Shown here piece by piece: positions 5,686 to 31,362 of a DNA stretch of 38,324 nucleotides; positions within the stretch are counted from its first letter, which is position 1; the number at the start of each line of letters is the position of its first letter. The position numbers were made by a program, and so were the translations under genes. The notes below the pieces were generated by a model. The model worked only from the letters and a program-made list of their open reading frames with translations, was not told the origin of the DNA and made no database searches. The DNA is from Armatimonadota bacterium (GTDB taxonomy: Bacteria; Armatimonadota; UBA5829; DTJY01): the NCBI GenBank assembly GCA_025358205.1, contig JANYKG010000140.1, forward strand, positions 1 to 38,324. The letters are read 5' to 3'.

Positions 5686-5686
5686 T

Positions 5687-6991
5687 CTAGTAACCTCGCT
5701 TTCCCACGGCCTTGTCCAGTGTCGCGCGGGCAACGTAGCAATCGTAAAGTGCCTGAGCATAGGCCGCCTGGGCATCCGCGTATGAGCGCTGGGCCGTGAC
5801 TAGCTCCAGGGTAATAGCCAGTCCTTGCTTGTATTTCTCCCGCATGACTTCCAGGTTCTTCTGTGCCATGTCCAGGTTCGGCTTGCTGGCGACCAACCGC
5901 TCCAATGCGTTTGTCAGGTTCAAGTATGCTTCTTCAACGTCAGCGGATACGTCTTTTCTTGACTGGTCCATGGCCAACGCGGATGATTCAGATTGTGACC
6001 TGGCGCTACGTATACCAGCAGAGACGAAGCCTGAACTGAATATGTTCAGCGTTACGCCAACACCGACAGACCATTCGTTGTCAAAACCGGAGCCGCCTAG
6101 GTTCTGGTCATATGACGCATTGGCGGTGGGAAGGGGAACGGCCTGTTGCTTGGCAAGGGTGAGAGATGCTTTGGCCGAGTCAACCTGAGCCAGTGCGCGG
6201 ATGATCTCAGGGCGATCTTTCAGGGCTGATGCGAGGCTGTCATCCAGCGATGGCACGTCGGCAGACGGTTCAGAGACGTCCTGCAACTGCAGCGCCTTAC
6301 CTCTGTCCAGCCCCATGGTATTTCGTAGCGTGTTTCCTGCGACCCTCACGTCGTTATCGGCCTGTATCTTGTTCAGTTTTGCGTTGGCTAGTTCAACCTC
6401 TACCTGGTAGATGTCCACCTTGGCGCCGTCACCTGCGTCAATTCTGGCCTGCACGAGTTCATACTGGCCTTGAGACTCGGCGACCGCCTGGCTTGCTATA
6501 TCGGCAAGTTTTTGGGTTCGCAGCACATCGAAGTATGCGGAGGTTACGGTCAGTATTCTGGTCTGCTTCGTCAGATCCAGGGCTGCGGCAGTTGCTCGCT
6601 CAGAGGCAGTCGCTTGGCGGACGCTTGCCACTGTTCGGCCCGCGTCATAGAGGGTTTCGGTCACTCCCACCACGCTGCTGGTACCGCTGGAACTCCTGTC
6701 AATGGTCCCCGTGCTTGTCGAAAGGTTTTTTGTTCCGCCGCTTGAGTAGTCGCTGCTGGCTGTGATCTTCGGGAGGTAACCGGATTTTGCGCGGGTGACA
6801 TCGGCTTTGCTCGCGGTCAGGTCCTTCTCTGCGATTAGCACGCTGCTGTGCTGATTGAGCGCGTATTCTATGCAGTCCTTCAGCGTCAACACACGATCCG
6901 GCAGGGTGGTTGTCGCCCCAACGGCATGTCCGCACAGCGGCATAACCATCAACGCGCATATCAGGATACTCAGTATTCTCGTGGCTCTCAT
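5687..6991 (-). CDS. TolC-family outer membrane efflux channel
   Basis: The 434-residue protein begins with a signal peptide (MRATRILSILICALMVMPLCGHAVGA). It then has two OEP repeats of alpha-helical barrel type; typical motifs are TLKDCIEYALNQHSSVLIAEKDL near the N-terminus, and in the second half SVGVGVTLNIFSSGFVSAGIRSA and LNLTNALERLVASK. The length is normal for TolC homologues. AGAGGAG lies 8 nt before ATG. It follows the MarR gene by 36 bp and precedes macA by 1 bp. It is direct evidence that the host has an outer membrane. Confidence 0.94.
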   Translation of the reverse strand: MRATRILSILICALMVMPLCGHAVGATTTLPDRVLTLKDCIEYALNQHSSVLIAEKDLTASKADVTRAKSGYLPKITASSDYSSGGTKNLSTSTGTIDRSSSGTSSVVGVTETLYDAGRTVASVRQATASERATAAALDLTKQTRILTVTSAYFDVLRTQKLADIASQAVAESQGQYELVQARIDAGDGAKVDIYQVEVELANAKLNKIQADNDVRVAGNTLRNTMGLDRGKALQLQDVSEPSADVPSLDDSLASALKDRPEIIRALAQVDSAKASLTLAKQQAVPLPTANASYDQNLGGSGFDNEWSVGVGVTLNIFSSGFVSAGIRSARSQSESSALAMDQSRKDVSADVEEAYLNLTNALERLVASKPNLDMAQKNLEVMREKYKQGLAITLELVTAQRSYADAQAAYAQALYDCYVARATLDKAVGKRGY

Positions 6992-7027
6992 CGAAACGGC
7001 TCCTCTCGCATTGGCATACCCCGTCTG

Positions 7028-7495
7028 CTAGTCTGTCTCCATAACGATATGTCTCAACATCTGCATAGATCGGGTAACTTCCTCTCGCTCGGAAGCTGAT
7101 AATGACTGCAGGCTCTTGGCCAAGTGCTCTTCAGCATGGCGCTTGGCCGAATCATATACAGTTATTCCCTCATTTGACAGTGTCAACACGGAACAACGTC
7201 TATCGTTCTGAGACACTTCCCGGTCCACCAACCCTCGCTTGACCAGACCGTCCATAGTTCTGGAGGCGGTCGGCAGGGCAACGCTCAGGCGTTCGGCAAC
7301 CTCTGACAGGGAAGCGTGGGTCTGTCTGTAGATGAATCCCATGGCACGAAACTGAGGGACGGACAGGCCTGCAGGACGATGACGCCGCATCTCGGCCCGG
7401 ATGACGCGCATGACGGCTGGAACTACCAGTAGGACTTCCCGCGCACACTCATCCACATCGGCGTTGTTATTGCTTTGGCCTGCTAATGGTTGCAT
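7028..7495 (-). CDS. MarR-family transcriptional regulator, first gene of the efflux operon
   Basis: The 155-residue protein has the MarR winged-helix: GLSVPQFRAMGFIYRQ, then THASLSEVAERLSVALPTASRTMDGLVKRGLV with the recognition helix, then the wing DREVSQNDRRCSVLTLSNEG. MarR proteins usually repress their own operon and release DNA on binding a small phenolic or lipophilic ligand. Here the gene is immediately upstream of tolC-macA-macB, so control of the pump is the obvious role. The start ATG sits only about 7 nt after a consensus -10 box, so the message appears leaderless. A 17-bp imperfect palindrome covers that -10 and start codon. Confidence 0.93.
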   Translation of the reverse strand: MQPLAGQSNNNADVDECAREVLLVVPAVMRVIRAEMRRHRPAGLSVPQFRAMGFIYRQTHASLSEVAERLSVALPTASRTMDGLVKRGLVDREVSQNDRRCSVLTLSNEGITVYDSAKRHAEEHLAKSLQSLSASEREEVTRSMQMLRHIVMETD

Positions 7496-7530
7496 ATGCT
7501 AAGTATATGGCGTGTGGAATTGTTTGTCAA
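7493..7530 (-). promoter_or_regulatory. Sigma70-type promoter with overlapping palindromic operator for marR-tolC-macAB
   Basis: On the minus strand there is TTGACA (7525-7530), exactly 17 nt, then TATACT (7502-7507). The normal start site 7 nt further is about 7495, the A of the marR ATG. A 17-bp imperfect palindrome, 7493-7509 (arms CATATGC and GTATATG, one mismatch), covers the -10 box and the start codon; it contains the perfect 8-mer GCATATGC at 7492-7499. This is where an autoregulating MarR dimer would be expected to bind. Operator function is inferred. Confidence 0.8.
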
Positions 7531-7552
7531 GAGGTTTTCTTGAGTCAGGTGA

Positions 7553-8206
7553 TCATGCACTCCACTGACACAGCTTCAAGTCTACCGTTGGGCCTGCTGT
7601 TTCACCCTGGCAGTGCTGTACAAAGTCCCGTACCAGCGCGGCCAGTTCGTCCGCTGTATAGGATTCTTCAGGCATGTTCAGCGGGTGGACCATAAGCTGC
7701 AGGAGTACCTCATCATGCGGCGGGATCGGGGGCTGGCGGTAGTCATAGCCCGTGATCATCCGCGCGCCCATGCGGTCGTAAAACCTCATCCGCTTGATCG
7801 GGTCGCCGTACTCGGGGTGCGACTCGGCGTCCATGCGCTCGACCTCGAACATCATGCACTTGAGGCCGGAGCCGTTTTCTTCCGATATCCGCTTCAGGTC
7901 ATCCAGGGTCGCGTTGTACAGCTTCCCACCAATGCCCAGTCCCCGCGTATCCTGACCCACGCACAGGTACCAAAGATATCCGAAGCCGGGCTGAGCGTGG
8001 TATTTGAAGAGGCTGAGGCCCAGGACTCTGTCACCCTGCCAAGCCATAATCAGGCGGGTTCTCAGCACGTCATCGGTGCCCAGCGAGGCCAGCATGTCGT
8101 CATAACTTCGCAGTTCCGCCGGGTGGAACGATCGCTCATACAGGTCGCGAACCTGCGCGTCGAATTCCTGAGGCACTGCGGACATTTCTTGAATGGTAAT
8201 CTGCAC
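7553..8206 (-). CDS. GNAT-family N-acetyltransferase
   Basis: I choose the GTG at 8206 (217 residues) because GGAGA lies 6 nt upstream. The longer frame to 8272 would translate through a hairpin repeat. The acetyl-CoA binding motif A is visible as LWYLCVGQDTRGLGIGGKLYN (Q-x-x-G-x-G variant), preceded by the beta-strand GDRVLGLSLFKYHA and followed by the FYDRMGARMITGYDY segment typical of the GNAT C-terminal half. The substrate is not identifiable. It is transcribed in the same direction as marR but is separated from its promoter by only about 20 bp and reads into it. The last 25 residues are not conserved-looking. Confidence 0.8.
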   Translation of the reverse strand: MQITIQEMSAVPQEFDAQVRDLYERSFHPAELRSYDDMLASLGTDDVLRTRLIMAWQGDRVLGLSLFKYHAQPGFGYLWYLCVGQDTRGLGIGGKLYNATLDDLKRISEENGSGLKCMMFEVERMDAESHPEYGDPIKRMRFYDRMGARMITGYDYRQPPIPPHDEVLLQLMVHPLNMPEESYTADELAALVRDFVQHCQGETAGPTVDLKLCQWSA

Positions 8207-8220
8207 GTCTATTCTCCATG

Positions 8221-8292
8221 CCTGCATTATGCACTTTTCCGCATAGTGCAGGGCCTTCTGAGCATTATTCACTTTTTTCGTGAATAATGCGG
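8221..8292 (+). repeat. Two-hairpin repeat, copy A
   Basis: Hairpin 1 is 8221-8232 paired with 8241-8252 (11 of 12 bp). The linker is GCCTTCTGA. Hairpin 2 is 8262-8272 with 8280-8290 (11 of 11 bp, loop TTTTTTC), followed by GG. It lies in the divergent gap between the GNAT gene and the phosphoglycerate mutase gene. The same architecture recurs at 12388, 13736 and 36996. Confidence 0.85.
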
Positions 8293-8355
8293 ACTCGTAT
8301 CCGCTACAGTTAGACCACGAGCCTGCTCAGTCCTTCGCAAATTCCGGTTCCCTCC

Positions 8356-8396
8356 CACTTTTCACTGTTGACTGTCCACTGTTCACTTTCCCCATT
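8356..8396. repeat. Heptad-periodic tract (CTGTTGA type)
   Basis: Successive 7-mers CTGTTGA, CTGTCCA, CTGTTCA, CTTTCCC follow one another without interruption. It belongs to the group of 7-bp-period intergenic tracts found throughout this window. No coding function is seen in the 8293-8401 gap. Confidence 0.65.
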
Positions 8397-8401
8397 CGGG
8401 C

Positions 8402-8431
8402 TTGCCAAGGACTCCGAAAATGGGGTATCCT
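8402..8431 (+). promoter_or_regulatory. Possible sigma70-type promoter for the phosphoglycerate mutase gene
   Basis: TTGCCA (8402-8407), 18-nt spacer, TATCCT (8426-8431), ending 38 bp before the ATG at 8470. Each box has a mismatch, so this is a moderate candidate only. Confidence 0.4.
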
Positions 8432-8469
8432 AAACTGGTGTTGGACATAGATCATTACGGAGGACGAGC

Positions 8470-9708
8470 ATGGAAGGACCGAAAGCGATTCTCTTGATAT
8501 GTGACGGCATGGGCGACAGGCCGGTTGCTTCGTTAGGCGGGCGCACCCCCTTGGAGGCTGCGAATACCCCGAACATGGATGCTCTGGCGGCGCAGGGCGT
8601 GTCCGGCCAGATGGACCCGATTGCACCTGGCATACGGGCGGGCAGTGACACTTCTCACCTGTCCATACTCGGCTACGACCCGTACGCGGTTTACACCGGC
8701 AGGGGTCCGTTCGAGGCGGCAGGCATCGGCATGGACGTGCAGAAGGGCGACGTCGCGTTCCGATGCAATTTCTCGACGGTAGACGCCAACCTGGTCATAC
8801 TGGACAGGCGCGCGGGGCGAATCGAAGTCGGGACTGATCAGCTTGCGGCGGCGGTGAACGGCATGAAGATCGAGGACGTGACTGTCTTCTTCAAGGAGTC
8901 CGTTGCTCACCGAGGCGCGCTCGTGCTCCGCGGCCCTGGTTTGGGTGCTGCTGTGACGGACGCCGACCCGCATGAGGTGGGCCTGGGCATCCACGACGCA
9001 CATGCGATTGACGCTTCGGACGCTGCCAGCGCGAAGACCGCCCGCATCGTCAACGTGTTCGTCCGCAAGTCATACGAACTGCTGAAAGATCACCCCGTGA
9101 ACAAGGCTCGCGAGGCCGATGGCAAGGGCGCTGCAAACATCATCCTGCCCAGAGGCGCGGGAGTTGCGCCGCACGTAGATGGCTTCGAGAAGAAGTACGG
9201 ACTGAAGCCTGCGTCGGTAGTGGAAACAGGGCTGATCGCAGGAATCGCGAAGTATCTGGGCATGGACATCATAGAAGTGCCGACCGCGAACGGCGGCCTG
9301 GACTCCGACGTGATGGCGATGGCCGACGCGATGGTGAAGGCGCTTGACGATCACAACTTCATTCTCAGCAACATCAAGGGCGGCGACATTGCAGGTCACG
9401 ACGGTGACGCTGCTGCCAAGGTGAAGTTCGCTGAGCGAGTTGATGCGGTCATCGGCAAGCTGATGAAGAGCGTGGACAAAGAGACGTACATCGTGCTCAC
9501 GGCGGACCACTCGACTCCTATCAGTACGAAAGACCATACCGGTGATCCTGTGGCGATAACCTTCTGGGGGCCGGATGTGCGGGTGGACTCGGTCAAGGCG
9601 TTTGACGAGCGTTCGGTGGTGAGCGGCGGTATTTCCAGGATATCCGGCACAGCGGTGATGCCGATCCTGACCCAGCTCATGAACGTGCAGGAGAAGTTCG
9701 GAGCGTAG
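8470..9708 (+). CDS. apgM: 2,3-bisphosphoglycerate-independent phosphoglycerate mutase, archaeal type
   Basis: The 412-residue protein of the alkaline-phosphatase superfamily interconverts 3- and 2-phosphoglycerate in glycolysis. Visible hallmarks are the metal-binding ICDGMGDRP near the N-terminus, TPLEAANTPNMDALA, the serine motif GSDTSHLSILGYDP with the probable phospho-Ser at residue 59, GRGPFEAAG, KGGDIAGHDGD and TADHSTP. These place it in the ApgM group rather than the longer GpmI group. GGAGGACGAGC precedes ATG, a strong ribosome site. It stands upstream of a GalM-like epimerase, both on the plus strand, separated by a repeat-filled 180 bp. Length is normal for the family. Confidence 0.95.
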   Translation: MEGPKAILLICDGMGDRPVASLGGRTPLEAANTPNMDALAAQGVSGQMDPIAPGIRAGSDTSHLSILGYDPYAVYTGRGPFEAAGIGMDVQKGDVAFRCNFSTVDANLVILDRRAGRIEVGTDQLAAAVNGMKIEDVTVFFKESVAHRGALVLRGPGLGAAVTDADPHEVGLGIHDAHAIDASDAASAKTARIVNVFVRKSYELLKDHPVNKAREADGKGAANIILPRGAGVAPHVDGFEKKYGLKPASVVETGLIAGIAKYLGMDIIEVPTANGGLDSDVMAMADAMVKALDDHNFILSNIKGGDIAGHDGDAAAKVKFAERVDAVIGKLMKSVDKETYIVLTADHSTPISTKDHTGDPVAITFWGPDVRVDSVKAFDERSVVSGGISRISGTAVMPILTQLMNVQEKFGA

Positions 9709-9712
9709 CTGG

Positions 9713-9867
9713 GAAAGCACGAAATTCGAAATCCGAAATTCGAAACAATTCCGAATAACCAATCGGGAAAGCTCCAAACAAGATCACTGGGTTCCGGTGT
9801 TTTGGATGTTTATCTTTTCCGGGTTCACCTTTTGTTTCGAATTTCGTGCTTCGAATTTCGAATTTGA
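9713..9867. repeat. Inverted-repeat element with GAAATTC heptad arms
   Basis: The left arm (9713-9748) has GAAATTC, GAAATCC, GAAATTC, GAAACAA in 7-bp register. The right arm (9832-9867) is its approximate inverse: TTGTTTCGAATTTCG, then further TTCGAATTTCG units. Between the arms lie about 84 bp with no open frame of interest. It fills the gap between apgM and the epimerase gene; nothing else is seen there. Confidence 0.75.
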
Positions 9868-9889
9868 TAGTGAGTAGGAGCAGGTGGCC

Positions 9890-10810
9890 ATGGTAATGGA
9901 TACATATAGACTGAATGACGGTACTTCGTTTTCGATAGCGCCGGGATGGGGGTGCAACATCACGTCCTGGCGGGTGGATGGAGTGGAACTGATGTACTAT
10001 CCCGAGGGGTTCGCGGAGACCGCCGAGCGAATCACGGGGGCAGGCAATCCCATTCTCTTCCCGTCGGTCGGACGAACGTGGGACCGCTCGGTAGCGCCGC
10101 CGATTCGGGGCGATTACAGCGTTTATGGCTCGGACAAGAAGTACTTCATGCCGAACCACGGCACCGTCTTCTTCTGCGACTTCCGCAAGGTCAGCGAGGA
10201 GAAGGGCGAGGACAGGATCACCGCGACATACGAGTTGGTTGTGCCGGAGAAGGTCCGCGAGGAGAACTATCCGTTCGACGTGGGTATGGTGCATAGCTTC
10301 TTGTTGACCCCGACGACCGTCGAACTGAAGGCGACTCTTACGAACAACGGTGATTCGCCCGCGCCGGTGGCATTCGGCTGGCATCCATACTTCCAGATCT
10401 CAAGTGCAGAGCGCGAAGGGGTGGAGGTTCGTGTGCCGTGCGCGAAAGAGGTCGTGCTTGAAGAAGTCACCAACCTTCCGACCGGCGAGTATGTGGACAC
10501 AGACGGCATAATCCCACTGAAGCCCGATGTCTTCTACGACAACGCCTTCGGGTTCACGAACGGCAGTCGGATGTCGCTGATTGACCGCAAGGCCGGGCAT
10601 ACCGTGCATGTGGACTTCGGCGACTGGGCCAAGCTGTTCCTGGTTTACACGCCGGTCGGCACGGATTTTGTATGCATCGAGCCGTGGACCAAGGGCATCG
10701 GGGAGTTCGAGAGCCTGAAGAATGCCGGCTGGGAGAAGACAGATTCGATCCTCGTCCTCCAGCCCGGCGAGAGTGTCACATATGATGCGGTGTTTTCCGT
10801 GGAGAGATGA
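9890..10810 (+). CDS. Aldose 1-epimerase (GalM-like) family protein
   Basis: I use the ATG at 9890 (306 residues) since AGGAG ends 9 nt upstream; an in-frame GTG at 9884 is too close to it. The galactose-mutarotase-like beta-sandwich is recognisable from GNPILFPSVGRTWD, PNHGTVFFCDF, LTNNGDSPAPVAFGWHPYF (catalytic-type His) and DFVCIEPWTKG (general-base-type Glu). Such enzymes interconvert anomers of free sugars or sugar phosphates. The exact sugar cannot be read from sequence. The gene ends at a hairpin made of heptad repeats. Confidence 0.85.
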   Translation: MVMDTYRLNDGTSFSIAPGWGCNITSWRVDGVELMYYPEGFAETAERITGAGNPILFPSVGRTWDRSVAPPIRGDYSVYGSDKKYFMPNHGTVFFCDFRKVSEEKGEDRITATYELVVPEKVREENYPFDVGMVHSFLLTPTTVELKATLTNNGDSPAPVAFGWHPYFQISSAEREGVEVRVPCAKEVVLEEVTNLPTGEYVDTDGIIPLKPDVFYDNAFGFTNGSRMSLIDRKAGHTVHVDFGDWAKLFLVYTPVGTDFVCIEPWTKGIGEFESLKNAGWEKTDSILVLQPGESVTYDAVFSVER

Positions 10811-10927
10811 TGAGTGACGAGTGATGAGTGAGCTATTCGCAGTAGTTCACTCATCACTCAATCACGTATCACGCGTCTTGTGTCAGTCACGGGCATTCCG
10901 AAATCCGAAATCCGCATTCCGAAATGG
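10811..10927. repeat. Heptad hairpin (GTGATGA arms) and GAAATCC tract between convergent genes
   Basis: A perfect 12-bp stem, 10820-10831 with 10847-10858, is built from GTGACGA/GTGATGA units and their inverse; the loop contains CGCAGTAGT. A second tract (10900-10927: GAAATCC, GAAATCC, GCATTCC, GAAATGG) follows. It fills the gap between the ends of the epimerase and DUF4139 genes and could end transcription from both sides. There is no U-tract. Confidence 0.75.
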
Positions 10928-10929
10928 AA

Positions 10930-12297
10930 TCACCACTTCACCCGGTCGGTGTACGTTACCTTCACCTCGCCGTCCTTGGGCACTTCCACCGGGAACTCCA
11001 CGGTTGACGCATCCTTCTTGTCGTACTTCTGCGAACTCTGGGTGATCTTCCAGTCGCCCCAGATGTGCTCAACCACGGTCACCGATACCGGCAGGGCCTT
11101 GTGGTTTCGGATGCTGATCTCGTAGCTGTACTCGTGCTCTCGGTCGCTGATCACCTTGTCTGTCATCTGCTTGCGCTCGCCCACGATGTCAAAAGCATCG
11201 CCCAGGTACAGGCGCAGCTTCTCGTCCTTGGGCGTGTGGTCAATGCTGTCCTCGCCGACGAAATGCTGGTTGGTGTCCGGCTCCTGCTTGTAGACGCGGA
11301 TGATCCCCTTGGGCAGCGGCATCCCCAGGTTGTTCTCCTTGCTGTTCACAATCTCCATCAGGACGTTCACCTTCTTGGGGTCCTTGGCACTGTCGTACAC
11401 GTAGAGTTTCTTCGCGGGGATTTTGTTCGCCGAGAGGAGCGACACCTGCTTCGATTCCTTGTTCTTGACTGTGGTCTTGTCCTTCATCGTGTACAGGTGG
11501 TACTCGAAGAAGCTCTTCTCCGTGAACTGGGATTCTCCCGCTTTCATCATCGGCGCGGGGGGCATCAAGTCATACGATACCCCGCTCTGCGGCTGCACAC
11601 GGTGGACATCGCCTGCCATCAGGTTCAGAGTCGCGTTCTCATAGGTGGTGCCGCTGTTGTTGTCCAGGGTGACCCAGCCGGTGAGATCAACATACTTGTC
11701 CAGCGGGTCAACCACGGCTACATAGTCAGCCTTCCAGCTCATTTCGTTCGCCAGGTAGGAGACCTCCGTCCTCTGAGAGCCGCCCTTGTCGGCCTGAACC
11801 AGCCACATAAGCGTCGGGCGGGAGACCAGCCCGGCGGGAAGCTCCTGCACTTGAATTTCGCCGCTGGGGTTGATCAGAATGCCTTTCGCTGTCTCAATGA
11901 CCGTGCCGTTCTCCGGTGTGCTGAGAAGCGTGCCCTCGATCTCGCTGATTCCGCCGGTATCCAGCACTCTGCGTACGATCACCTTCTTGCCGACCGACTT
12001 GTTCAGAATCGTGTTCGAGTTCACCACATCGTACTGGTAGTTCTGTTCTCGAACCACGACGCCGTTCGGATCGTCCAGCGACTTGAAGTGTACGGTGTCG
12101 GTCTGAATCGTCGCAGCCACATCGGCAACGAGCAGGCGGTTCAGTCCTTGCTCCAGGGTCATCTGCCGCTGCTCTTTCACAAGCGCGAAGTTCTGATTGT
12201 AGATCGTCAGCTCAACCGCGCTCGGTCCGCTAACGGTGCTCGCCCCCAGGCACGGTACGGCAAGAAGCAAGACTGCTAGTAGTGCGAATGTCTTCAT
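10930..12297 (-). CDS. Secreted DUF4139 domain protein
   Basis: The 455-residue protein starts with a signal peptide (MKTFALLAVLLLAVPCLGA). It carries the DUF4139 pattern: an N-terminal beta domain with VELTIYNQNFALVKEQRQMTLEQGLN, a middle part with GTLLSTPENGTVIETAKG, then SWKADYVAVVDPLDKYVDLTGWVTLDNNSGTTYENATLNLMAGDVHRV, and a beta-rich C-terminus ending VPKDGEVKVTYTDRVKW. The molecular function of DUF4139 proteins is not established; they are exported, mostly beta proteins. AGGAGG lies about 7 nt before ATG. It lies downstream of the DUF362 gene on the same strand, but repeats fill the 164 bp between them. Confidence 0.88.
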   Translation of the reverse strand: MKTFALLAVLLLAVPCLGASTVSGPSAVELTIYNQNFALVKEQRQMTLEQGLNRLLVADVAATIQTDTVHFKSLDDPNGVVVREQNYQYDVVNSNTILNKSVGKKVIVRRVLDTGGISEIEGTLLSTPENGTVIETAKGILINPSGEIQVQELPAGLVSRPTLMWLVQADKGGSQRTEVSYLANEMSWKADYVAVVDPLDKYVDLTGWVTLDNNSGTTYENATLNLMAGDVHRVQPQSGVSYDLMPPAPMMKAGESQFTEKSFFEYHLYTMKDKTTVKNKESKQVSLLSANKIPAKKLYVYDSAKDPKKVNVLMEIVNSKENNLGMPLPKGIIRVYKQEPDTNQHFVGEDSIDHTPKDEKLRLYLGDAFDIVGERKQMTDKVISDREHEYSYEISIRNHKALPVSVTVVEHIWGDWKITQSSQKYDKKDASTVEFPVEVPKDGEVKVTYTDRVKW

Positions 12298-23876: not shown

Positions 23877-23906
23877 TTGTCATATAGTCGCCGAATGAGG
23901 TATAAT
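23877..23906 (+). promoter_or_regulatory. Sigma70-type promoter for the hydrogenase-related operon
   Basis: TTGTCA (23877-23882), 18-nt spacer, perfect TATAAT (23901-23906). Predicted start near 23913, giving a leader of about 170 nt before the first gene. The leader contains an isolated AGGAGG (23943-23948) and repeat derivative E. Confidence 0.7.
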
Positions 23907-23968: not shown

Positions 23969-24000
23969 CCTGGACTATTCATGGAGTGAATAATGCGGGC
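23969..24000 (+). repeat. Two-hairpin repeat, deletion derivative E
   Basis: CCTGGACTATTCAT matches the left arm of hairpin 1 (compare copy B). GTGAATAATGCGGGC matches the right arm and tail of hairpin 2. The middle, with both inner arms and the linker, is missing. The result is one short hairpin in the operon leader. Confidence 0.65.
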
Positions 24001-24082
24001 TAATCACTAGCGGAACGTACAAGTGGTGACCTATCGTCTCGTAGGGTGGGTCAGCGCTTATGTATTCAGACGGGTGTCATGT

Positions 24083-26071
24083 ATGTCTGTTTCTGAACTA
24101 TTGGGCGGCTCCGGCGTATGGTGCGGGGCCGCTCTCCTATTGTGGTCGGCTGCTTTCTTGGTGGGCGTGTGCCGACGACGGTATTCGGGTCCGATTTTAC
24201 CAACGCTGGTTCTGGCAGGGAACGTATGTCTGTTGCTGGTCGCGTTCGCGGGCGGAACCAGAACCGTCACACTTCCGCTCCCCTGGTTTATTGGCGACGC
24301 GGGCTTCACCTTTGTGATTGACCCGCTGAGCCGTTGGTTCCTCGCCATCATCGGGCTGATCGGCATCCCCGTTACGCTGTTCTCCCCCGGCTATTTGCAA
24401 CACCTTCGTCAGCGCGTATCTCTCGGGTTCGTGTGGGCGGCCCTTGCGCTGCTAATGACCAGCATGGCCGGTGTTGTGCTGTCCGCAAACGCCCTGGTCT
24501 TTCTTGTTGCCTGGGAGGTCATGGCGCTGTCGTCGTTTGCCCTAGTGGCGGCCGATCACGAGCAGCGGGACATCCGGCGCGCGGCGTTCGTCTACCTGGG
24601 CGCGACACGAGCCGGCACGGCGTTCCTGATGACCGGGTTTCTCTGGGTGCATCACCTCACCGGTAGTTGGAGTTTTGCGGATTGGGGTCTTTCGGGCGCG
24701 ACTGCATTGGCGCCTGCGCTGCTCATACTGGTCGGACTGGCCACCAAGGCCGGGTGCTGGCCGTTCCACCTATGGCTGCCGATAGCCCATCCCGCCGCTC
24801 CAGCCCCGGTATCGGCGATCATGAGCGGCGTGATGATCAAGACCGCGATCTACGCGATGGTGCGGCTGTTCATAGTGGGCAACCACATCGCCGTTCCAGC
24901 TATCGGGCCAATTCTGCTGATTCTGGGCGCGATATCCGCATTCTGGGGCGTCATATTCGCTTTGCTGCAGCACGACCTGAAGCGACTTCTGGCCTACCAC
25001 AGCGTCGAGAACATCGGCATCATCCTCATGGGGCTAGGGGTTTCGTTGCTCGGCACACGCTATGGCATTCCTTTCCTGGCTCAGCTCGGTCTGGCGGCAG
25101 CGCTGTTTCATACGCTGAACCACGCTGTTTTCAAGAGCCTGCTCTTCCTGGGAACAGGCGCGATTGACGCACGAACCCACCTGCGCAACGTCGAACAGCT
25201 TGGCGGGCTGATCAGGCGCATGCCGTGGACAGCCGCCGCGTTTATTGTGGGCAGCGCGTCCATCTGCGCATTGCCGCCGTTAAACGGGTTTGCCAGCGAG
25301 TGGCTGCTGTACCAGGGGTTTTTCAACATCGCGAGGAGCGGGCCGACAACCGGCGCGCGATTCGGCGGCCTGCTGCTGATGGGGTGGCTGGCGCTTGTCG
25401 GGGCGTTGGCGATAGCATGTTTTGTGAAGGCTGTTGGCATCGTGTTCCTCGGCGTTCCGAGAAGCCCGCAGGCCGAGAAGGCGCATGAGGCTGGTCCGGG
25501 CATGGTCGGCGCACAGGTGTTGCTGGCTGTGCTCTGCGCTGTTCTCGGGGTAGGCGCGACCAGCGTTCTGATTCCCTTGGGCAAGATCACCGCGCTGATC
25601 GGTGACAGCGGATCGCTTGACGGCGTTTGGACGTTGCCGATTCCGCTTCTTGCCGTTGTGTTGGTTCTCACCATAGGCGCGATTGCCGCGTGGATGCAGC
25701 TACTGGCTCGAACGCGGCCGTCAAGGGTCTTCATCACCTGGGAGTGCGGGTTCGGCGACCTGGGGCCGAGAACGCAGTACACGGCGAGCAGTTTTGCTCA
25801 GCCCATCGCGCGTATTTTTGGGGCGATCTACGGCTATGGAACGCAGATAACTGTTGACGATGGCAAGCGGGGGCACTTCCCGCAGAGCGTGGACGCCGAA
25901 ACGACACACGAGGCGTACCTGGAAACGAAGGTGTACATGCCGTTTCTTCAGGGCGTCCAGCGCGTGGCCAGTGTCTTTCTCATGCGCTTGCAGGCCGGGA
26001 GCGTCCATCAATACTTGTTCTACATGGCCGTGGTGCTGGGATTGTTGATCTGGGTGGGGGTACGCGGATGA
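24083..26071 (+). CDS. HyfB/NuoL-like proton-translocating subunit of hydrogenase-related complex
   Basis: The multi-spanning antiporter-like subunit is about 662 residues. Key residues for proton transfer are present: Glu in LVAWEVMALSSFALV, Lys in VGLATKAGCWPFHLWLPIAHPAAPAPVSAIMSG, and Lys in LLQHDLKRLLAYHSVENIGI. The C-terminus WECGFGDLGPRTQYTASSFAQP and GVQRVASVFLMRLQAGSVHQYLFYM is typical of HyfB/HycC and not of NuoL. The start is uncertain: an in-frame stop at 24008 limits it, GTG 24023 and ATG 24083 are possible, and neither has a good ribosome site. It is the first gene of a six-gene unit and overlaps the next gene by 4 bp. Confidence 0.9.
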   Translation: MSVSELLGGSGVWCGAALLLWSAAFLVGVCRRRYSGPILPTLVLAGNVCLLLVAFAGGTRTVTLPLPWFIGDAGFTFVIDPLSRWFLAIIGLIGIPVTLFSPGYLQHLRQRVSLGFVWAALALLMTSMAGVVLSANALVFLVAWEVMALSSFALVAADHEQRDIRRAAFVYLGATRAGTAFLMTGFLWVHHLTGSWSFADWGLSGATALAPALLILVGLATKAGCWPFHLWLPIAHPAAPAPVSAIMSGVMIKTAIYAMVRLFIVGNHIAVPAIGPILLILGAISAFWGVIFALLQHDLKRLLAYHSVENIGIILMGLGVSLLGTRYGIPFLAQLGLAAALFHTLNHAVFKSLLFLGTGAIDARTHLRNVEQLGGLIRRMPWTAAAFIVGSASICALPPLNGFASEWLLYQGFFNIARSGPTTGARFGGLLLMGWLALVGALAIACFVKAVGIVFLGVPRSPQAEKAHEAGPGMVGAQVLLAVLCAVLGVGATSVLIPLGKITALIGDSGSLDGVWTLPIPLLAVVLVLTIGAIAAWMQLLARTRPSRVFITWECGFGDLGPRTQYTASSFAQPIARIFGAIYGYGTQITVDDGKRGHFPQSVDAETTHEAYLETKVYMPFLQGVQRVASVFLMRLQAGSVHQYLFYMAVVLGLLIWVGVRG

Positions 26072-26994
26072 GCAACACAACGTTTTTCCTGGTAGTTCAG
26101 GCCGTCAACATTCTGCTTGCCCCGCTGCTTCTCGTGGGGATCATCCGCAAGGTGAAGGCGCTCATGCAGAACCGCGTGGGTGCGCCTGTACTCCAGCCGT
26201 TCTACGATCTCGCGAAACTGCTGCGAAAGTCACAGACCGTGAGCAAGAATGCGAGTTGGGTATTCACATGGGCGCCTATTGTCGGGCTGGCGGTCGGGCT
26301 GATCGCTGCAGTTCTGGTTCCGTGGGCCGGTGCGCTTCTGCCTGCAGACTGGGCGGTTGCTACGAATTTCCTCCTGGTGATCTATCTCATGGCGCTCGCG
26401 AAGTTCTTCTCCATGCTTGCCGCGATTGACACCGGTTCCGCGTTCGGCGGACTGGGTGCGAGTCGTGAGGCAACCATCTCGATGTTGGTGGAGCCGACTC
26501 TTATTATCGGTTTGGGTGCGCTGGCATTAGGCACTGGAAGCACCGATCTGCTGACCATCTACTCTGCGCCGATCAACCCGTTCATCGCGGTTCTGGTGGG
26601 CGCGGCGCTGGTCGCGGCGGCGTTGGCTGAGCTTTCTCGAATGCCGGTGGACGATCCGACCACTCACCTGGAACTGACGATGGTACATGAGGCGATGATT
26701 CTCGAATACAGCGGGCGCAGTCTTGCGATCATCGAGTATGCGGTGGCGCTCAGGACGTGCGTCTTCTTCGGACTGGCAGCGCAGACTCTCTTGCACGTAT
26801 GGCCGGGGTACCAGGATATGGCGATGCTCTCGCGCTACCTTGTGAGCCTCGGCACCTTGGCTGTCTTTGGCATAGCGGTGGCGGTAGTAGAAGGCGTGCT
26901 GGTCAAGTTGAGATGGCGGAGCGTACCGAATTTCCTGGCGTTTGCGGCGGTGTTGAGCTTGTTGGCGGCGCTGGTCGCGGCGGCACAGATATGA
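26068..26994 (+). CDS. HyfC/NuoH-like membrane subunit
   Basis: The 308-residue, hydrophobic protein has about eight membrane helices. The NuoH/HycD signature is seen in KVKALMQNRVGAPVLQPFYDLAKLLRK near the N-terminus, then FSMLAAIDTGSAFGGLGASREATISMLVEP, and ELSRMPVDDPTTHLELTMVHEAMILEYSGRSLAIIEY with the conserved acidic residues of the quinone/ion-channel junction region. This subunit joins the membrane arm to the peripheral arm in all complex I and group 4 hydrogenase relatives. ATGA overlap with the preceding gene. Confidence 0.94.
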   Translation: MSNTTFFLVVQAVNILLAPLLLVGIIRKVKALMQNRVGAPVLQPFYDLAKLLRKSQTVSKNASWVFTWAPIVGLAVGLIAAVLVPWAGALLPADWAVATNFLLVIYLMALAKFFSMLAAIDTGSAFGGLGASREATISMLVEPTLIIGLGALALGTGSTDLLTIYSAPINPFIAVLVGAALVAAALAELSRMPVDDPTTHLELTMVHEAMILEYSGRSLAIIEYAVALRTCVFFGLAAQTLLHVWPGYQDMAMLSRYLVSLGTLAVFGIAVAVVEGVLVKLRWRSVPNFLAFAAVLSLLAALVAAAQI

Positions 26995-27016: not shown

Positions 27017-27661
27017 ATGAACCTATCGCAGACTGATCTATTTGCCGCAGGGGCAGCCGTGGTGGCCGTCTGGATGTGCGGGCTGACACGGGTGAAGACG
27101 CAGCTATGGGGTTTGGTGCTGCAGGCGGCGTTGCTGTCCAGTATCTGCGCTCGGCTTGCCATGGCAGAGCATTACAACCATCTGCTCGTCCTGGCTTCCG
27201 CTATGTTCGTCATCAAAGCTGTCGCCATACCCATCTTTCTCGGGAGGTCGGCTGCAAGCATGGGCATCACTAGCGACCGAGGTGCGAACGTTCACCCAAC
27301 AGTGACGCTCATCATCGGTTGTGGATTGCTCGTGATTGGGTATTTTCTGACGCCGCATTTCGAGGTGCCTGCCATGCTGAACCCCGGGTCCGCCGGTATG
27401 TCGGTCGCGCTCTTGTTCATCGGGATGCTGCTCATGATCACGCGCAGGCTGGCGATAAGTCAGGTGATAGGCTTTCTCACGATGGAAAGCGGAATCTCAC
27501 TCTACAGCCTCACTCAGACGCGCGGGATGCCGCTGCTGCTCGAGATGATAATCGTCTTTGAAGTGCTCATCGGCGTGCTGATCGCGGGACTGGTGATATT
27601 CCGCATCAACCGCAGTTTTGAGCATATTGACGTAACGCACATGAGGGGGTTGCACGATTGA
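27017..27661 (+). CDS. HyfE/NuoK-like membrane subunit
   Basis: The 214-residue protein has six or so membrane helices and matches HyfE. LWGLVLQAALLSSICARLAMAEHYNHLLVLASAMFVIKAVAIPIFLGR is the N-terminal half. The second half, IGMLLMITRRLAISQVIGFLTMESGISLYSLTQTRGMPLLLEMIIVFEVLIG, holds the conserved Glu residues in membrane helices shared with NuoK. It starts 22 bp after hyfC and its TGA overlaps the TTG start of the next gene. Confidence 0.9.
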   Translation: MNLSQTDLFAAGAAVVAVWMCGLTRVKTQLWGLVLQAALLSSICARLAMAEHYNHLLVLASAMFVIKAVAIPIFLGRSAASMGITSDRGANVHPTVTLIIGCGLLVIGYFLTPHFEVPAMLNPGSAGMSVALLFIGMLLMITRRLAISQVIGFLTMESGISLYSLTQTRGMPLLLEMIIVFEVLIGVLIAGLVIFRINRSFEHIDVTHMRGLHD

Positions 27662-29106
27662 ACCCGTTCATACTGATCGCGATTCTACCTCTTGTGATGG
27701 TGTTACTCGGCCTGGTTCCGAGTACCGCGCGCCGTCTGCCGTGGATGAGCGCCGCGCTGATGCTGGTTCAGATTCCGGTTGTCGGCTGGGTATGCTACCC
27801 GATCTTTTCCGGCAGGACGCTCTACTGGGGCGTGCTGGGGATGGACGGCATAGGGGCCGCGTTCACCATTATCACCACCATTGTCTCCGCCGCCGCGATG
27901 GTTCAAGCCGCGCTCGTCATGCCTGCAGAACGCTCGCAAGGGCACAACATAACGGACCGTCGCTTTGGCATGTTCTATACCTTGTCCGGTCTGTTCATGA
28001 TTTCGATGTACGCTGTTCCGCTTGCCAGGCACCTTGGCGTGCTCTGGATTGCTATCGAAGCCACAACGCTGATGTCTGCGCCGCTCATCAACTACCACCA
28101 CAGCCGTGATTCGCTGGAGGCGACGTGGAAGTATCTGCTGCTGTGCAGTGTAGGCATCGCGTTCGCGCTCTTTGGCACGTTGCTGATCTTTGCAGCACAG
28201 CACAACTCCGCAGGTGGTGGGACGATGATGATAAGCGGTTTGATCGCCCACGCGAAGGAAATGGACCCGCGCTTGCTGCGGTTTGGATTCGTCTTCTGCC
28301 TGCTGGGTTATGGGACAAAGGCGGGCATCTTCCCGCTTCACAACTGGCTACCGGATGCCCACAGCGAGGCGCCGTCCACCGCGTCGGCCATGCTCTCGGG
28401 CGCATTGTTGAATTGCGCGCTGGTTGCTATCTGGCGTTTGTCGGGGGTGGTCACGGCGGCAGGGCAGGCGGAGTTGGTCCGCCACCTGCTGGTTCCAGCA
28501 GGGGCGATCACGGTGGTTGCGGCTAGCCTCATGCTGATACGCCAGCACGACCTGAAGCGCATGTTGGCCTATTCCAGCGTGGAGCACGTCGGGCTGCTGA
28601 CACTCGCAATAGGGATCGGTTCGGGGCGGGTGTTCATTCTTCACGCGCTCAACCACAGCATCGTGAAAGTCGCAATGTTCCTGCTCGCGGGTGGGATTCT
28701 GCATTCGTACGGTACCAAGGCGCTGCCGAAGCTGGGCGGTCTGCTCAAGACGATCCCGGTCTGGGGTGTGGCGCTGATGGCGGGAGCATTCGCCGTAGCG
28801 GGCAGTCCGCCGTTTGGCACGTTTATCAGCGAGTGGCTCTTGCTTAGGGACACGTTTGCGGCAGGAGAGACTGCGGCTGCGGTGTCAGTGTTGCTCGGCC
28901 TGACGATTGCCTTCATCGCGATCACGAGGCATATCGGGCGGGTCGTGCTTGGTACGGTGAGAGCGCCGGTAGAGACAACCCCCGTGCGTTCATGGGCGAT
29001 CGTGCCGTCGGCGCTGTTGATCATATCGCTGATTAGCGGGGTTGCACTGGCTCCTCCGGTGATGCGCGTACTGACGATTCTGGTACAGGCAGGAGGCCGG
29101 CGATGA
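27658..29106 (+). CDS. HyfF/NuoN-like proton-translocating subunit
   Basis: The second antiporter-like subunit has 482 residues. The start is a TTG inside the 4-bp overlap TTGA with the previous stop. Pump residues are present: Glu in LWIAIEATTLMSAPLINYHH, Lys in GYGTKAGIFPLHNWLPDAHSEAPSTASAMLSG, Lys in RQHDLKRMLAYSSVEHVGLL, and the later HALNHSIVKVAMFLLAGG. PPFGTFISEWLLLRD is typical of HyfF. Together with HyfB the complex has two proton-channel subunits; no HyfD-like third one is present. Confidence 0.93.
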   Translation: MNPFILIAILPLVMVLLGLVPSTARRLPWMSAALMLVQIPVVGWVCYPIFSGRTLYWGVLGMDGIGAAFTIITTIVSAAAMVQAALVMPAERSQGHNITDRRFGMFYTLSGLFMISMYAVPLARHLGVLWIAIEATTLMSAPLINYHHSRDSLEATWKYLLLCSVGIAFALFGTLLIFAAQHNSAGGGTMMISGLIAHAKEMDPRLLRFGFVFCLLGYGTKAGIFPLHNWLPDAHSEAPSTASAMLSGALLNCALVAIWRLSGVVTAAGQAELVRHLLVPAGAITVVAASLMLIRQHDLKRMLAYSSVEHVGLLTLAIGIGSGRVFILHALNHSIVKVAMFLLAGGILHSYGTKALPKLGGLLKTIPVWGVALMAGAFAVAGSPPFGTFISEWLLLRDTFAAGETAAAVSVLLGLTIAFIAITRHIGRVVLGTVRAPVETTPVRSWAIVPSALLIISLISGVALAPPVMRVLTILVQAGGRR

Positions 29107-30602
29107 TGAATATGTTCAAGCGCGTTGAAGAAACACCATCGGCTTTGGCCCTAACTGTGAAGAACTGGCTGGCGCATCGGGGCAGGCGGTTCGGCCACCT
29201 TACCGCGCGGGCGAACGGCAAAGGGCAATTCGTCATTGAAGCGCTGGCGCTTGATCGGAATACCGGCGGCGGCCTCATCATCACCGCCCCGCTGACTGAA
29301 GGAGAGTTGAAGTATCCTTCGCTGACACCGGAGACCCCGGCTGCCCACTGGGCGGAACGAGCGGTCGGCGATCTCTTCGGAATCCAGGCCACCGGGCACC
29401 CGCGCTGGAAGTCGCTGATACTCCACAGTGACGCCTGGCCGGACGATCCCGCGCCGCTGTCATCGCTGGAGCGTCTGCACAAGGAGCCGTACCCGTTTCT
29501 GGAGGTATCCGGCGAGGGAGTACATGAGATCCCGGTGGGTCCGATACATGCCGGCATCATCGAGCCGGGTCATTTCAGATTCAGTTGCGTCGGGGAGATC
29601 ATCTCGAATCTTGATATTCGGCTGGGCTATCAGCATCGCGGGGTGGAAAAGCGGCTTGCTGAGCTTCCGTGGCAGCAGATGCGCTATCTAGCTGAATCGG
29701 CCGGCAGCGACACCGCAGCCGGTAACGCGCTTGCACATGCGACGGCGATGGAGACCATCCTCGGCATTGAACCGCCGCCGCGCGCTCAGGCATTGCGGAC
29801 GGTTGCGCTTGAACTGGAGCGTTTGGCCAACCATGTCGGCGATCTAGGCGCGCTGTCGGGCGATATCGGTTACAGTGCGTGTGCCGCGTTGTTTCCGCCG
29901 ATGCGGGGAGCTGTCCTGGCACTGGCTCAGTTGCTGACAGGGACGAGGAGACAACGGTACTACATCAAACCGGGAGGAGTGGCGCGCGACTTGGACGACA
30001 CACGGAGAACGGCCCTGGTGCAGGGGCTTGTGGATATCTCGAGACGCCTTGAGGAGCTGATTCCCCTGGTCTTGGAAAACCCTGCAGTCATAGAGCGCAT
30101 GGAGGGTACGGGGCGTTTGAGTCCGACCCTGGCCCGCGACTTCGGAATCGTTGGACCCGCCGCCCGCGCGAGTGGCAGCCACTACGATGCGCGTGAGGTC
30201 TTCGCTCACGGCGTCTATCCGGGCCGTGCGCCCAAGGTCGCCAGCCGCACGACGGGCGATGTGTTGGCAAGGGCGCAGATCAGGGTAGACGAGATTCACG
30301 CAGGTCTGGAATTTCTCACCGAGTTGCTGGACGATCTACCGAAGGGTGCGATCTTCATTGACTGCGATCAGGAGAAGCTGCCGCTGGATGCGGTGGGCGT
30401 GGGGATAGTTGAGGCGTGGCGCGGCGAGCTTATCCACTGGGTCACTACCGACCGCACGGGGGCCATCTCGCGCTACTCCATCAAGGACCCCAGTTTCAAC
30501 AATTGGACAGGGCTGGCCATCGCCGCTCGTGGGAATCTGGTCGCCGATTTCCCCTTGTGCAACAAGAGCTTCAACCTGTCGTACAGCGGAAACGATCTCT
30601 AG
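29103..30602 (+). CDS. HyfG/HycE-like (NuoCD-fused) large subunit lacking all [NiFe] cysteines
   Basis: The 499-residue protein fuses a NuoC-like domain (residues 1 to about 150; HWAERAVGDLFGIQATGHPRW) with a NuoD/hydrogenase large-subunit domain (PVGPIHAGIIEPGHFRF; RLGYQHRGVEKRLAEL; ALELERLANHVGDLGAL). Where HycE has the C-G-x-C motif, this protein reads AESAGSDTAAGNALAHA (about residues 198-212). Where HycE has D-P-C-x-x-C, it ends NLSYSGNDL. No ligand Cys remains, so a [NiFe] centre cannot be built. The frame is intact and well conserved elsewhere, so this is not decay. The ATGA overlap with hyfF couples translation. Best described as an Ehr-type subunit; its chemistry is unknown. Confidence 0.93.
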   Translation: MMNMFKRVEETPSALALTVKNWLAHRGRRFGHLTARANGKGQFVIEALALDRNTGGGLIITAPLTEGELKYPSLTPETPAAHWAERAVGDLFGIQATGHPRWKSLILHSDAWPDDPAPLSSLERLHKEPYPFLEVSGEGVHEIPVGPIHAGIIEPGHFRFSCVGEIISNLDIRLGYQHRGVEKRLAELPWQQMRYLAESAGSDTAAGNALAHATAMETILGIEPPPRAQALRTVALELERLANHVGDLGALSGDIGYSACAALFPPMRGAVLALAQLLTGTRRQRYYIKPGGVARDLDDTRRTALVQGLVDISRRLEELIPLVLENPAVIERMEGTGRLSPTLARDFGIVGPAARASGSHYDAREVFAHGVYPGRAPKVASRTTGDVLARAQIRVDEIHAGLEFLTELLDDLPKGAIFIDCDQEKLPLDAVGVGIVEAWRGELIHWVTTDRTGAISRYSIKDPSFNNWTGLAIAARGNLVADFPLCNKSFNLSYSGNDL

Positions 30603-30615
30603 AGGAAGATATGCC

Positions 30616-31362
30616 ATGAACAATCCGTTGCTCTCCATAATCAAAACAGGCATCATCACTCAGAAGGATTTGTTTCCTGATCTGACTGATGACGCTATCG
30701 GATTGCCTTCACTCACATCCACGCCTTGCAGGAGCGCTGACTGCATGAAGTGCGTTAGCGCATGCCCGACGCGCGCAATCACGGTTGACGATGACCTGGT
30801 GACGCTTGATCGCGGGAGTTGTCTTGGCTGCAATCAGTGTGTGGCGGCCTGTCCATCAGGAACCATAGTAGCGGATCGTTCGACGAAAACAGCGGTTCGG
30901 ACGCGTAAGGAGTTGGTAATCAGCAATCAAGTTAAGCCGGTCACAACATCTGCTCCGACCAAGCTGCCGTTCCAGCGGTCTCTCCACGTGCGCGAGGTGG
31001 CGACGGGCGACAACGCGTGTGATCTGGAGGTGATCGCCTCCACAAACGCTATCTTTGATATCGCGCGATTCGGCATCCACTTTGTCGCATCGCCCAGGTT
31101 TGCGGATGCGCTGCTTCTCACGGGGCCGGTTGGACGAGCTATGCAGGAGCCGCTGCGCCGCTGTTATGACGCGATGGCGGAACCTCGGCTAGTGATCGCA
31201 GCGGGTGTGAGCGCGATCAGCGGGGGCCTGCATGGAGGTGGTTATGCTGAGGCAAACGGCGTGGACAGCATCTTGCCGGTTTCCGCCTACATTCCGGGTG
31301 ATCCGCCTCATCCCTGGAGCATAATCCACGGTCTCATGCTTGCCATGGGGCGCTTGGAATGA
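30616..31362 (+). CDS. Ferredoxin-NuoB/HyfI fusion subunit with incomplete N2 cluster site
   Basis: The start is ATG 30616 (248 residues) with AGAGGAAG 7 nt upstream. Residues 38-80 form a two-[4Fe-4S] ferredoxin: C38-x4-C43-x2-C46-x3-C50-P and C69-x2-C72-x2-C75-x3-C79-P; the first spacing is longer than usual. Residues from about 115 are HycG/NuoB-like: DLEVIASTNAIFDIARFGIHFVASPRFADALLLTGPVGRAMQEPL, ISGGLHGGGY and SILPVSAYIPGDPPHPW. Of the four N2-cluster ligands only C135 remains; the others are D132, S199 and D229. HyfH and HyfI functions are thus combined in one chain, but the proximal cluster is probably absent. Last gene of the complex. Confidence 0.9.
   Translation: MNNPLLSIIKTGIITQKDLFPDLTDDAIGLPSLTSTPCRSADCMKCVSACPTRAITVDDDLVTLDRGSCLGCNQCVAACPSGTIVADRSTKTAVRTRKELVISNQVKPVTTSAPTKLPFQRSLHVREVATGDNACDLEVIASTNAIFDIARFGIHFVASPRFADALLLTGPVGRAMQEPLRRCYDAMAEPRLVIAAGVSAISGGLHGGGYAEANGVDSILPVSAYIPGDPPHPWSIIHGLMLAMGRLE

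What the first reader, a model, noticed from the sequence alone, without database searches (positions are those of the whole stretch)
29103..30602. Hydrogenase-like large subunit with all four [NiFe] ligand cysteines gone
The operon has the formate-hydrogenlyase-like set HyfB-C-E-F-G-(H/I). In HyfG, the N-terminal C-G-x-C motif is replaced by AGSDTAAG and the C-terminal D-P-C-x-x-C by NLSYSG. The frame is intact, 4-bp overlaps with the neighbours are kept, and the membrane subunits keep the pump Lys/Glu residues. So an energy-coupling machine is preserved without hydrogen chemistry. Energy-converting hydrogenase-related (Ehr) complexes are known to lack these cysteines and sit between complex I and group 4 hydrogenases; their reaction is unknown.
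Basis: partly seen in the sequence, partly recalled or inferred. Interest (0 to 1): 0.75.

Follow-up and report, generated by a model that had tools for sequence, protein, structure and literature searches.

The report
Hydrogenase-like ion pump missing redox centres
This Armatimonadota operon encodes a relative of respiratory complex I and membrane hydrogenases whose nickel-iron ligands are all gone and, as newly seen here, whose next iron-sulfur cluster site is gone too, while its membrane ion-pump parts and a two-cluster ferredoxin domain are strictly kept.

Summary
HyfG-like ORF 29103-30602 has Gly201/Thr204 and Ser493/Gly496 where [NiFe] hydrogenases have their four Cys, and ends at -SYSGNDL* with no C-terminal extension. 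The ~97% complete genome has no hypD and no NiFe hydrogenase. All relatives found (13 Armatimonadota sequences, 7 ordinary plasmid Ehr, others) lack the Cys pairs. A tree puts them in one clade (100/100) apart from true group-4 hydrogenases and NuoD, so this is an Ehr-type complex, a known kind.

Ten of 12 clade members have lost the set and two keep 3 of 4; ordinary Ehr keep all four. The ferredoxin's eight Cys and the pump Lys/Glu are invariant, and the 'dead' NuoB domain is the most conserved part. The known electron path is therefore cut twice. Most likely this is an ion-translocating complex driven or gated at the ferredoxin clusters or at a rebuilt non-metal site; function is unproven. 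Side finding: fused relatives in Burkholderiaceae lie directly behind fluoride riboswitches.

The parts
24083..26071 (+). HyfB/NuoL-like antiporter subunit
   Evidence: PF00361; best PDB match FHL HycC 7z0s_C, E 1e-68. Glu136, Lys213, Lys244, His338, Lys342, Glu397 (numbered from codon 24110) are invariant in the clade.
26068..26994 (+). HyfC/NuoH-like subunit (E-channel)
   Evidence: PF00146; 7z0s_D E 7e-28. Glu142, Glu188, Glu202, Glu208, Glu213 are invariant in the clade.
27017..27661 (+). HyfE-like (NuoK-like) membrane subunit
   Evidence: NF008556 and weak PF00420. Glu176 invariant; position 157 is Glu or Asp.
27658..29106 (+). HyfF/NuoN-like antiporter subunit (TTG start)
   Evidence: PF00361, NF005044. 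Glu134, Lys221, Lys337, Glu392 are invariant in the clade.
29103..30602 (+). HyfG/NuoCD-like large subunit without any [NiFe] ligand Cys
   Evidence: Ligand columns are G201, T204, S493, G496. PF00329 and PF00346 match; PF00374 weak. Best PDB match HycE 7z0s_E; Foldseek best 7z0s_E, E 2.6e-29.
30616..31362 (+). Small subunit: NuoI/HycF-like 2x[4Fe-4S] ferredoxin (residues ~30-90) fused to a NuoB/HycG-like domain (~118-245) that has lost the N2/proximal-cluster Cys
   Evidence: Eight Fd Cys (38,43,46,50,69,72,75,79) invariant in 12/12; N2 columns are D132, C135 (Cys in the window only), S199, D229. Residues 7-100 match HycF 7z0s_F; the rest matches HycG.
23877..23906 (+). Promoter-like site TTGTCA-18-TATAAT, ~177 nt upstream of hyfB
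   Evidence: 11 of 12 consensus, though the region holds no more such sites than shuffles. No riboswitch by Rfam in the leader.

Best explanation
An Ehr-type (energy-converting hydrogenase-related) membrane complex of six subunits that keeps a complete antiporter/E-channel membrane arm but has lost, in order, the [NiFe] site and then the N2/proximal cluster. Shown from sequence: loss of all four NiFe ligands, loss of the N2 ligand set, retention of a NuoI/HycF-like two-cluster ferredoxin domain fused to the NuoB domain, and strong constraint on all six subunits. Inferred: electrons can enter and leave only at the ferredoxin clusters. The region that once held N2 and NiFe is now a non-metal coupling element, with new invariant residues T130, H232-P-W234 and H238 and a mostly conserved D132. 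Redox change at the N6b-like cluster, or chemistry at this rebuilt site, drives or gates H+/Na+ movement through the HyfB/HyfF antiporter subunits.
For: NiFe and N2 ligand columns. Fd Cys are 8/8 in all 12 members. The two outside relatives that also lost N2 (Allomeiothermus L024, M. branderi L053) keep exactly four Fd Cys: the CP Cys of motif 1 and the CxxCxxC of motif 2. By the usual NuoI ligand assignment (my knowledge) these form cluster N6b. Pump residues invariant. The NuoB domain has the highest mean pairwise identity, 0.667, against 0.43-0.50 for the membrane subunits. dN 0.09-0.31 with dS near or beyond saturation. The Variovorax relative L052 has PPHP while still holding four N2 Cys, and L041/L042 have PPHPW with three, so the new motif came before the Cys loss. 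NuoD's quinone Tyr and His are not kept: S202 and I153. No hypD, no NiFe hydrogenase in the genome.
Against: No biochemical data. A cluster with other ligands, or a bound cofactor, at the N2 position cannot be excluded from sequence. The structure models do not resolve the cavity (large-subunit residues 128-176 and 467-499 have pLDDT under 50) and are single chains. The window itself retains one Cys (C135) at an N2 column. No electron donor or partner gene was recognised next to the operon.
Confidence: 0.45

Rival explanations
1. Ordinary Ehr-like ferredoxin:acceptor oxidoreductase: electrons still reach a substrate in the large-subunit cavity, with N2 replaced by a cluster with non-Cys ligands or by another cofactor.
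For: The Fd clusters are kept, so electron input looks needed. L041/L042 have three Cys, which could hold a cluster with one non-Cys ligand, and the first-ligand Cys is replaced by Asp in the other ten. The NuoB domain is highly conserved.
Against: The replacing residues at ligands 2-4 vary freely (A/S/T/C; S/G/A/Q; D/H/S/N/G), unlike a conserved new ligand set.
Confidence: 0.22
2. Complex I-like quinone reductase using the former NiFe cavity as a quinone site.
For: Overall complex I/Ehr architecture; quinone has been proposed as the acceptor for other Ehr (PMC6349859). E-channel residues kept.
Against: Positions of the quinone-binding Tyr and His of NuoD are S202 and I153. N2, the known donor to quinone, has no ligand set.
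Confidence: 0.13
3. Redox-independent cation/H+ antiporter: the cytosolic module is only a scaffold or regulatory cap, and the Fe-S domain is structural or a sensor.
For: Membrane arm residues invariant. Redox ligands were lost repeatedly: the tree needs 4 changes of the N2-lost label, and L024/L053 keep only one Fd cluster set. Fluoride-riboswitch-linked relatives sit near CrcB and CLC-type ion transporters.
Against: Full retention of eight Fd Cys in 12/12 Armatimonadota members is more than a scaffold needs.
Confidence: 0.15
4. Decaying remnant operon or assembly error.
For: Patchy distribution: 12 of 291 Armatimonadota genomes carry the clade.
Against: Cassette intact wherever the contig allows, in genomes of several families. 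All six subunits similarly constrained. The same genome's own complex I NuoB has its normal Cys (L050).
Confidence: 0.05

Closest known systems
Ehr (energy-converting hydrogenase-related) complexes, including plasmid-borne Ehr of Rhizobium, Paraburkholderia, Azospirillum and Rhodococcus, and by literature M. tuberculosis Rv0081-Rv0087
   Same: NuoCD-like large subunit without NiFe Cys, C-terminal NKSFx-SYSG-DL, same B-C-E-F membrane set; literature calls the function unknown (PMC6728331). An ArsR-type regulator gene precedes the operon in several clade members, as Rv0081 (ArsR/SmtB, PMC4928086) does in M. tuberculosis.
   Different: Ordinary Ehr keep all four N2 Cys and have a short NuoB without ferredoxin. 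The window clade has a fused ferredoxin and no N2 ligand set. M. tuberculosis sequences were not aligned here.
E. coli formate hydrogenlyase (7z0s/7z0t) and MBH (6cfw)
   Same: Best or near-best solved-structure matches for the large, small, HyfB-like, HyfC-like and HyfF-like subunits.
   Different: No NiFe ligands, no N2 ligand set, no formate dehydrogenase or HycB recognised next to the operon, HycF and HycG fused.
Respiratory complex I (NuoCD, NuoB, NuoI, NuoH, NuoL/N)
   Same: Homologous core subunits and conserved antiporter and E-channel charges.
   Different: No N2 ligand set, no quinone Tyr/His, no NuoEFG in the operon; the genome has a separate complex I-type NuoD/NuoB (L050).
Fluoride-riboswitch-linked 'formate hydrogen lyase' loci (Caballeronia L051, B. 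cenocepacia L054, M. branderi L053)
   Same: Fused ferredoxin-NuoB small subunit, NiFe Cys pairs absent; L053 also lost the N2 Cys.
   Different: They carry RF01734 upstream of the operon. The window and the clade loci scanned have none beside the operon.

Membership tests
Ehr complex | Group-4-hydrogenase-like large subunit lacking the NiFe-ligand Cys | tested here: met
   G201, T204, S493, G496 at the four columns
Ehr complex | Membrane arm with antiporter-like, NuoH-like and HyfE-like subunits | tested here: met
Ehr complex | Phylogenetic placement apart from true hydrogenases and NuoD, with other Cys-less complexes | tested here: met
   Clade 100/100 with plasmid Ehr. The published Marreiros 2013 reference set was not available.
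Ehr complex | NuoB-like small subunit with a full N2 ligand set (present in all 7 ordinary Ehr examined; whether the published definition requires it could not be read) | tested here: not met
   Ligand set lost in 10 of 12 clade members including the window; 3 of 4 kept in L041/L042
Group 4 [NiFe] hydrogenase / formate hydrogenlyase | CxxC and DPCxxC NiFe ligands | tested here: not met
Group 4 [NiFe] hydrogenase / formate hydrogenlyase | Hyp maturation machinery in the genome | tested here: not met
   hypD (PF01924) absent from G000, 97% complete; other hyp genes not searched
Respiratory complex I | N2 cluster ligands and NuoD quinone Tyr/His | tested here: not met
Ion-translocating energy-converting complex | H+/Na+ transport coupled to a reaction | not testable with these tools
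   Only conservation of pump residues shown

The most novel reading that the evidence does not exclude
A complex I/hydrogenase-type pump in which both the catalytic metal site and its obligatory electron donor cluster have been lost, so that coupling no longer runs from N2 to a cavity: the active or gating site has moved to the ferredoxin/N2-site region (new T130, PPHPW and H238 residues), or the machine has become a redox-gated antiporter.
Probability: 0.4. Interest if true: 0.85.

Novelty: new variant of a known kind. Interest (0 to 1): 0.62.

Why it matters
How electron transfer in the cytosolic arm drives ion pumping far away in complex I is a long-standing question, usually framed around N2 and the quinone (or NiFe) cavity. 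A conserved natural complex that keeps the pump and the ferredoxin clusters but lacks N2 and NiFe ligands tests directly which part is needed for coupling. It also narrows what the widespread, functionally unknown Ehr complexes can be doing, since some evolve without a complete electron path. The fluoride-riboswitch link suggests one physiological setting, ion stress, for part of the family, and that the 'formate hydrogen lyase' label there is wrong.

Tried and rejected
Fluoride riboswitch upstream of the window operon: none, nor beside the operons of the clade loci scanned; the genome's own RF01734 copy lies on another contig. Structured leader RNA: fold not unusual, z -0.81. Idea that L024 has no Fe-S at all: withdrawn, because four Cys of one cluster set remain. 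Claim of two independent N2 losses inside the Armatimonadota: the tree prefers it (99/99) but one loss is not rejected (AU p 0.095), so I do not rely on it. Marreiros 2013 not held. HyfE had no PDB match by sequence.

Full report
Observation. The ORF at 29103-30602 (+) is intact and encodes 499 aa. It matches Complex1_30kDa, Complex1_49kDa and, weakly, NiFeSe_Hases; its closest solved relative is HycE of E. coli formate hydrogenlyase. Aligned with true group-4 hydrogenases from the same phylum, the four NiFe-ligand Cys are G201, T204, S493 and G496. The protein ends at -SYSGNDL*, without the tail the hydrogenases have.

Not an artefact and not a matured hydrogenase. In 291 Armatimonadota genomes 13 have a strong match, and 12 of these form the window's clade; with locus L022 the tree holds 13 clade sequences. 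The six-gene cassette is present in the same order in the loci where the contig allows. None has the Cys. HypD is absent from the window's genome, which is 97% complete, and from G001, G052 and G061, though present in G029, G033 and G041. No other NiFe-hydrogenase large subunit is found in the window's genome. It also has no COX1-type oxidase.

Placement. In a tree of 35 large subunits the Cys-less proteins form one clade (100/100) apart from the phylum's group-4 hydrogenases and from NuoD; the window clade within it is 100/100. Plasmid homologues from Rhizobium, Paraburkholderia, Azospirillum, Methylovirgula, Methylocalor and Rhodococcus share the operon and the C-terminal NKSFx-SYSG-DL motif. 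Literature calls such complexes Ehr, function unknown (PMC6349859, PMC10284858, PMC6728331, PMC4378227, PMC10432482), and includes M. tuberculosis Rv0081-Rv0087 among them (PMC6728331).

The last gene (30616-31362) is a fusion. Residues 7-100 match HycF, the NuoI-like two-cluster subunit, and residues 118-248 match HycG/NuoB (Foldseek best 7z0t_G). Its eight ferredoxin Cys are invariant in all 12 available clade members. The NuoB domain has lost the proximal/N2 ligands: CNGC...C...C has become DNAC...S...D in the window, whose one Cys (C135) is not shared by relatives. Ten of 12 members have lost the set, and L041/L042 keep three. All seven ordinary Ehr, the phylum's hydrogenases and the window genome's own complex I keep the Cys.

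Evolution of the loss. Fused relatives outside the phylum are informative. Variovorax, Caballeronia and B. cenocepacia are fused and keep N2. M. branderi and Allomeiothermus silvanus lost N2 and keep four ferredoxin Cys that, by the usual NuoI assignment (my knowledge), form cluster N6b. The N2-lost state needs four changes on the concatenated tree. One loss within the Armatimonadota is not rejected (AU p 0.095), and L024, L052 and L053 are long branches, so I claim at least two losses. The new motif PGxPPHPW is invariant in the clade; its PPHP part occurs in Variovorax with N2 intact, so it probably came before the Cys loss.

Constraint. The antiporter Glu/Lys of HyfB and HyfF and the Glu set of HyfC are invariant. 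Mean pairwise identity within the clade is 0.43-0.50 for membrane subunits, 0.50 for the large subunit and the ferredoxin domain, and 0.667 for the NuoB domain that lost its cluster ligands. dN is 0.09-0.31 with dS near or beyond saturation. This is not decay.

Mechanism. By the known layout, electrons pass NuoI-type clusters, then N2, then quinone or NiFe. With N2 and NiFe both gone, that route has no intermediate over a distance too long for fast tunnelling (inference from the known structures). The quinone Tyr and His of NuoD are also absent (S202, I153). I therefore favour coupling or gating at the ferredoxin clusters or at a rebuilt non-metal site in NuoB (0.45). Rivals are a replacement cluster or cofactor (0.22), a redox-independent antiporter (0.15), quinone reduction (0.13) and decay (0.05). 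The predicted models confirm the folds but not the cavity.

Side finding. Fused Ehr operons of Caballeronia and B. cenocepacia lie directly behind fluoride riboswitches, and that of M. branderi follows one with a NUDIX gene between. Their large subunits have no NiFe Cys pairs. Reviews call the riboswitch-associated enzyme formate hydrogen lyase and one infers a shift to fermentation (PMC11139923, PMC8004769); in these three cases it is an Ehr complex. The window operon has no such riboswitch.

Noticed in passing
L054:3987-4057 (+) and L051:3983-4053 (+): Fluoride riboswitches (RF01734) directly upstream of Ehr operons in B. cenocepacia and Caballeronia plasmids. The 'formate hydrogen lyase' linked to fluoride riboswitches lacks NiFe Cys in these cases, so it is an Ehr complex.
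   Followed up: partly
L053:3606-3679 and 4221-11660: Mycobacterium branderi plasmid: fluoride riboswitch, NUDIX, Ehr operon with N2 ligands lost, then enolase and DUF190 genes.
   Followed up: partly
L024:11278-12147: Allomeiothermus silvanus plasmid Ehr small subunit lost N2 and one ferredoxin cluster but kept the four Cys of the other.
   Followed up: partly
L041-L048 and L024, gene just upstream of hyfB: ArsR-type regulator gene conserved before the operon in most clade members, as Rv0081 in M. tuberculosis; the window has none and starts with a divergent URO-D-like gene.
   Followed up: partly
L052:2382-9666 and 13078 onward: Variovorax plasmid carries two Ehr operons side by side, one fused-ferredoxin type with N2 kept and one ordinary type.
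   Followed up: no
window 23973-24002: Short hairpin in the hyfB leader; similar short palindromes recur on contig C92 of the same genome (REP-like), but only one other close match to the full 30-mer exists.
   Followed up: partly
L057 (G000:C82:22834-22901): The window's own genome has a fluoride riboswitch elsewhere, with no obvious crcB just downstream.
   Followed up: no
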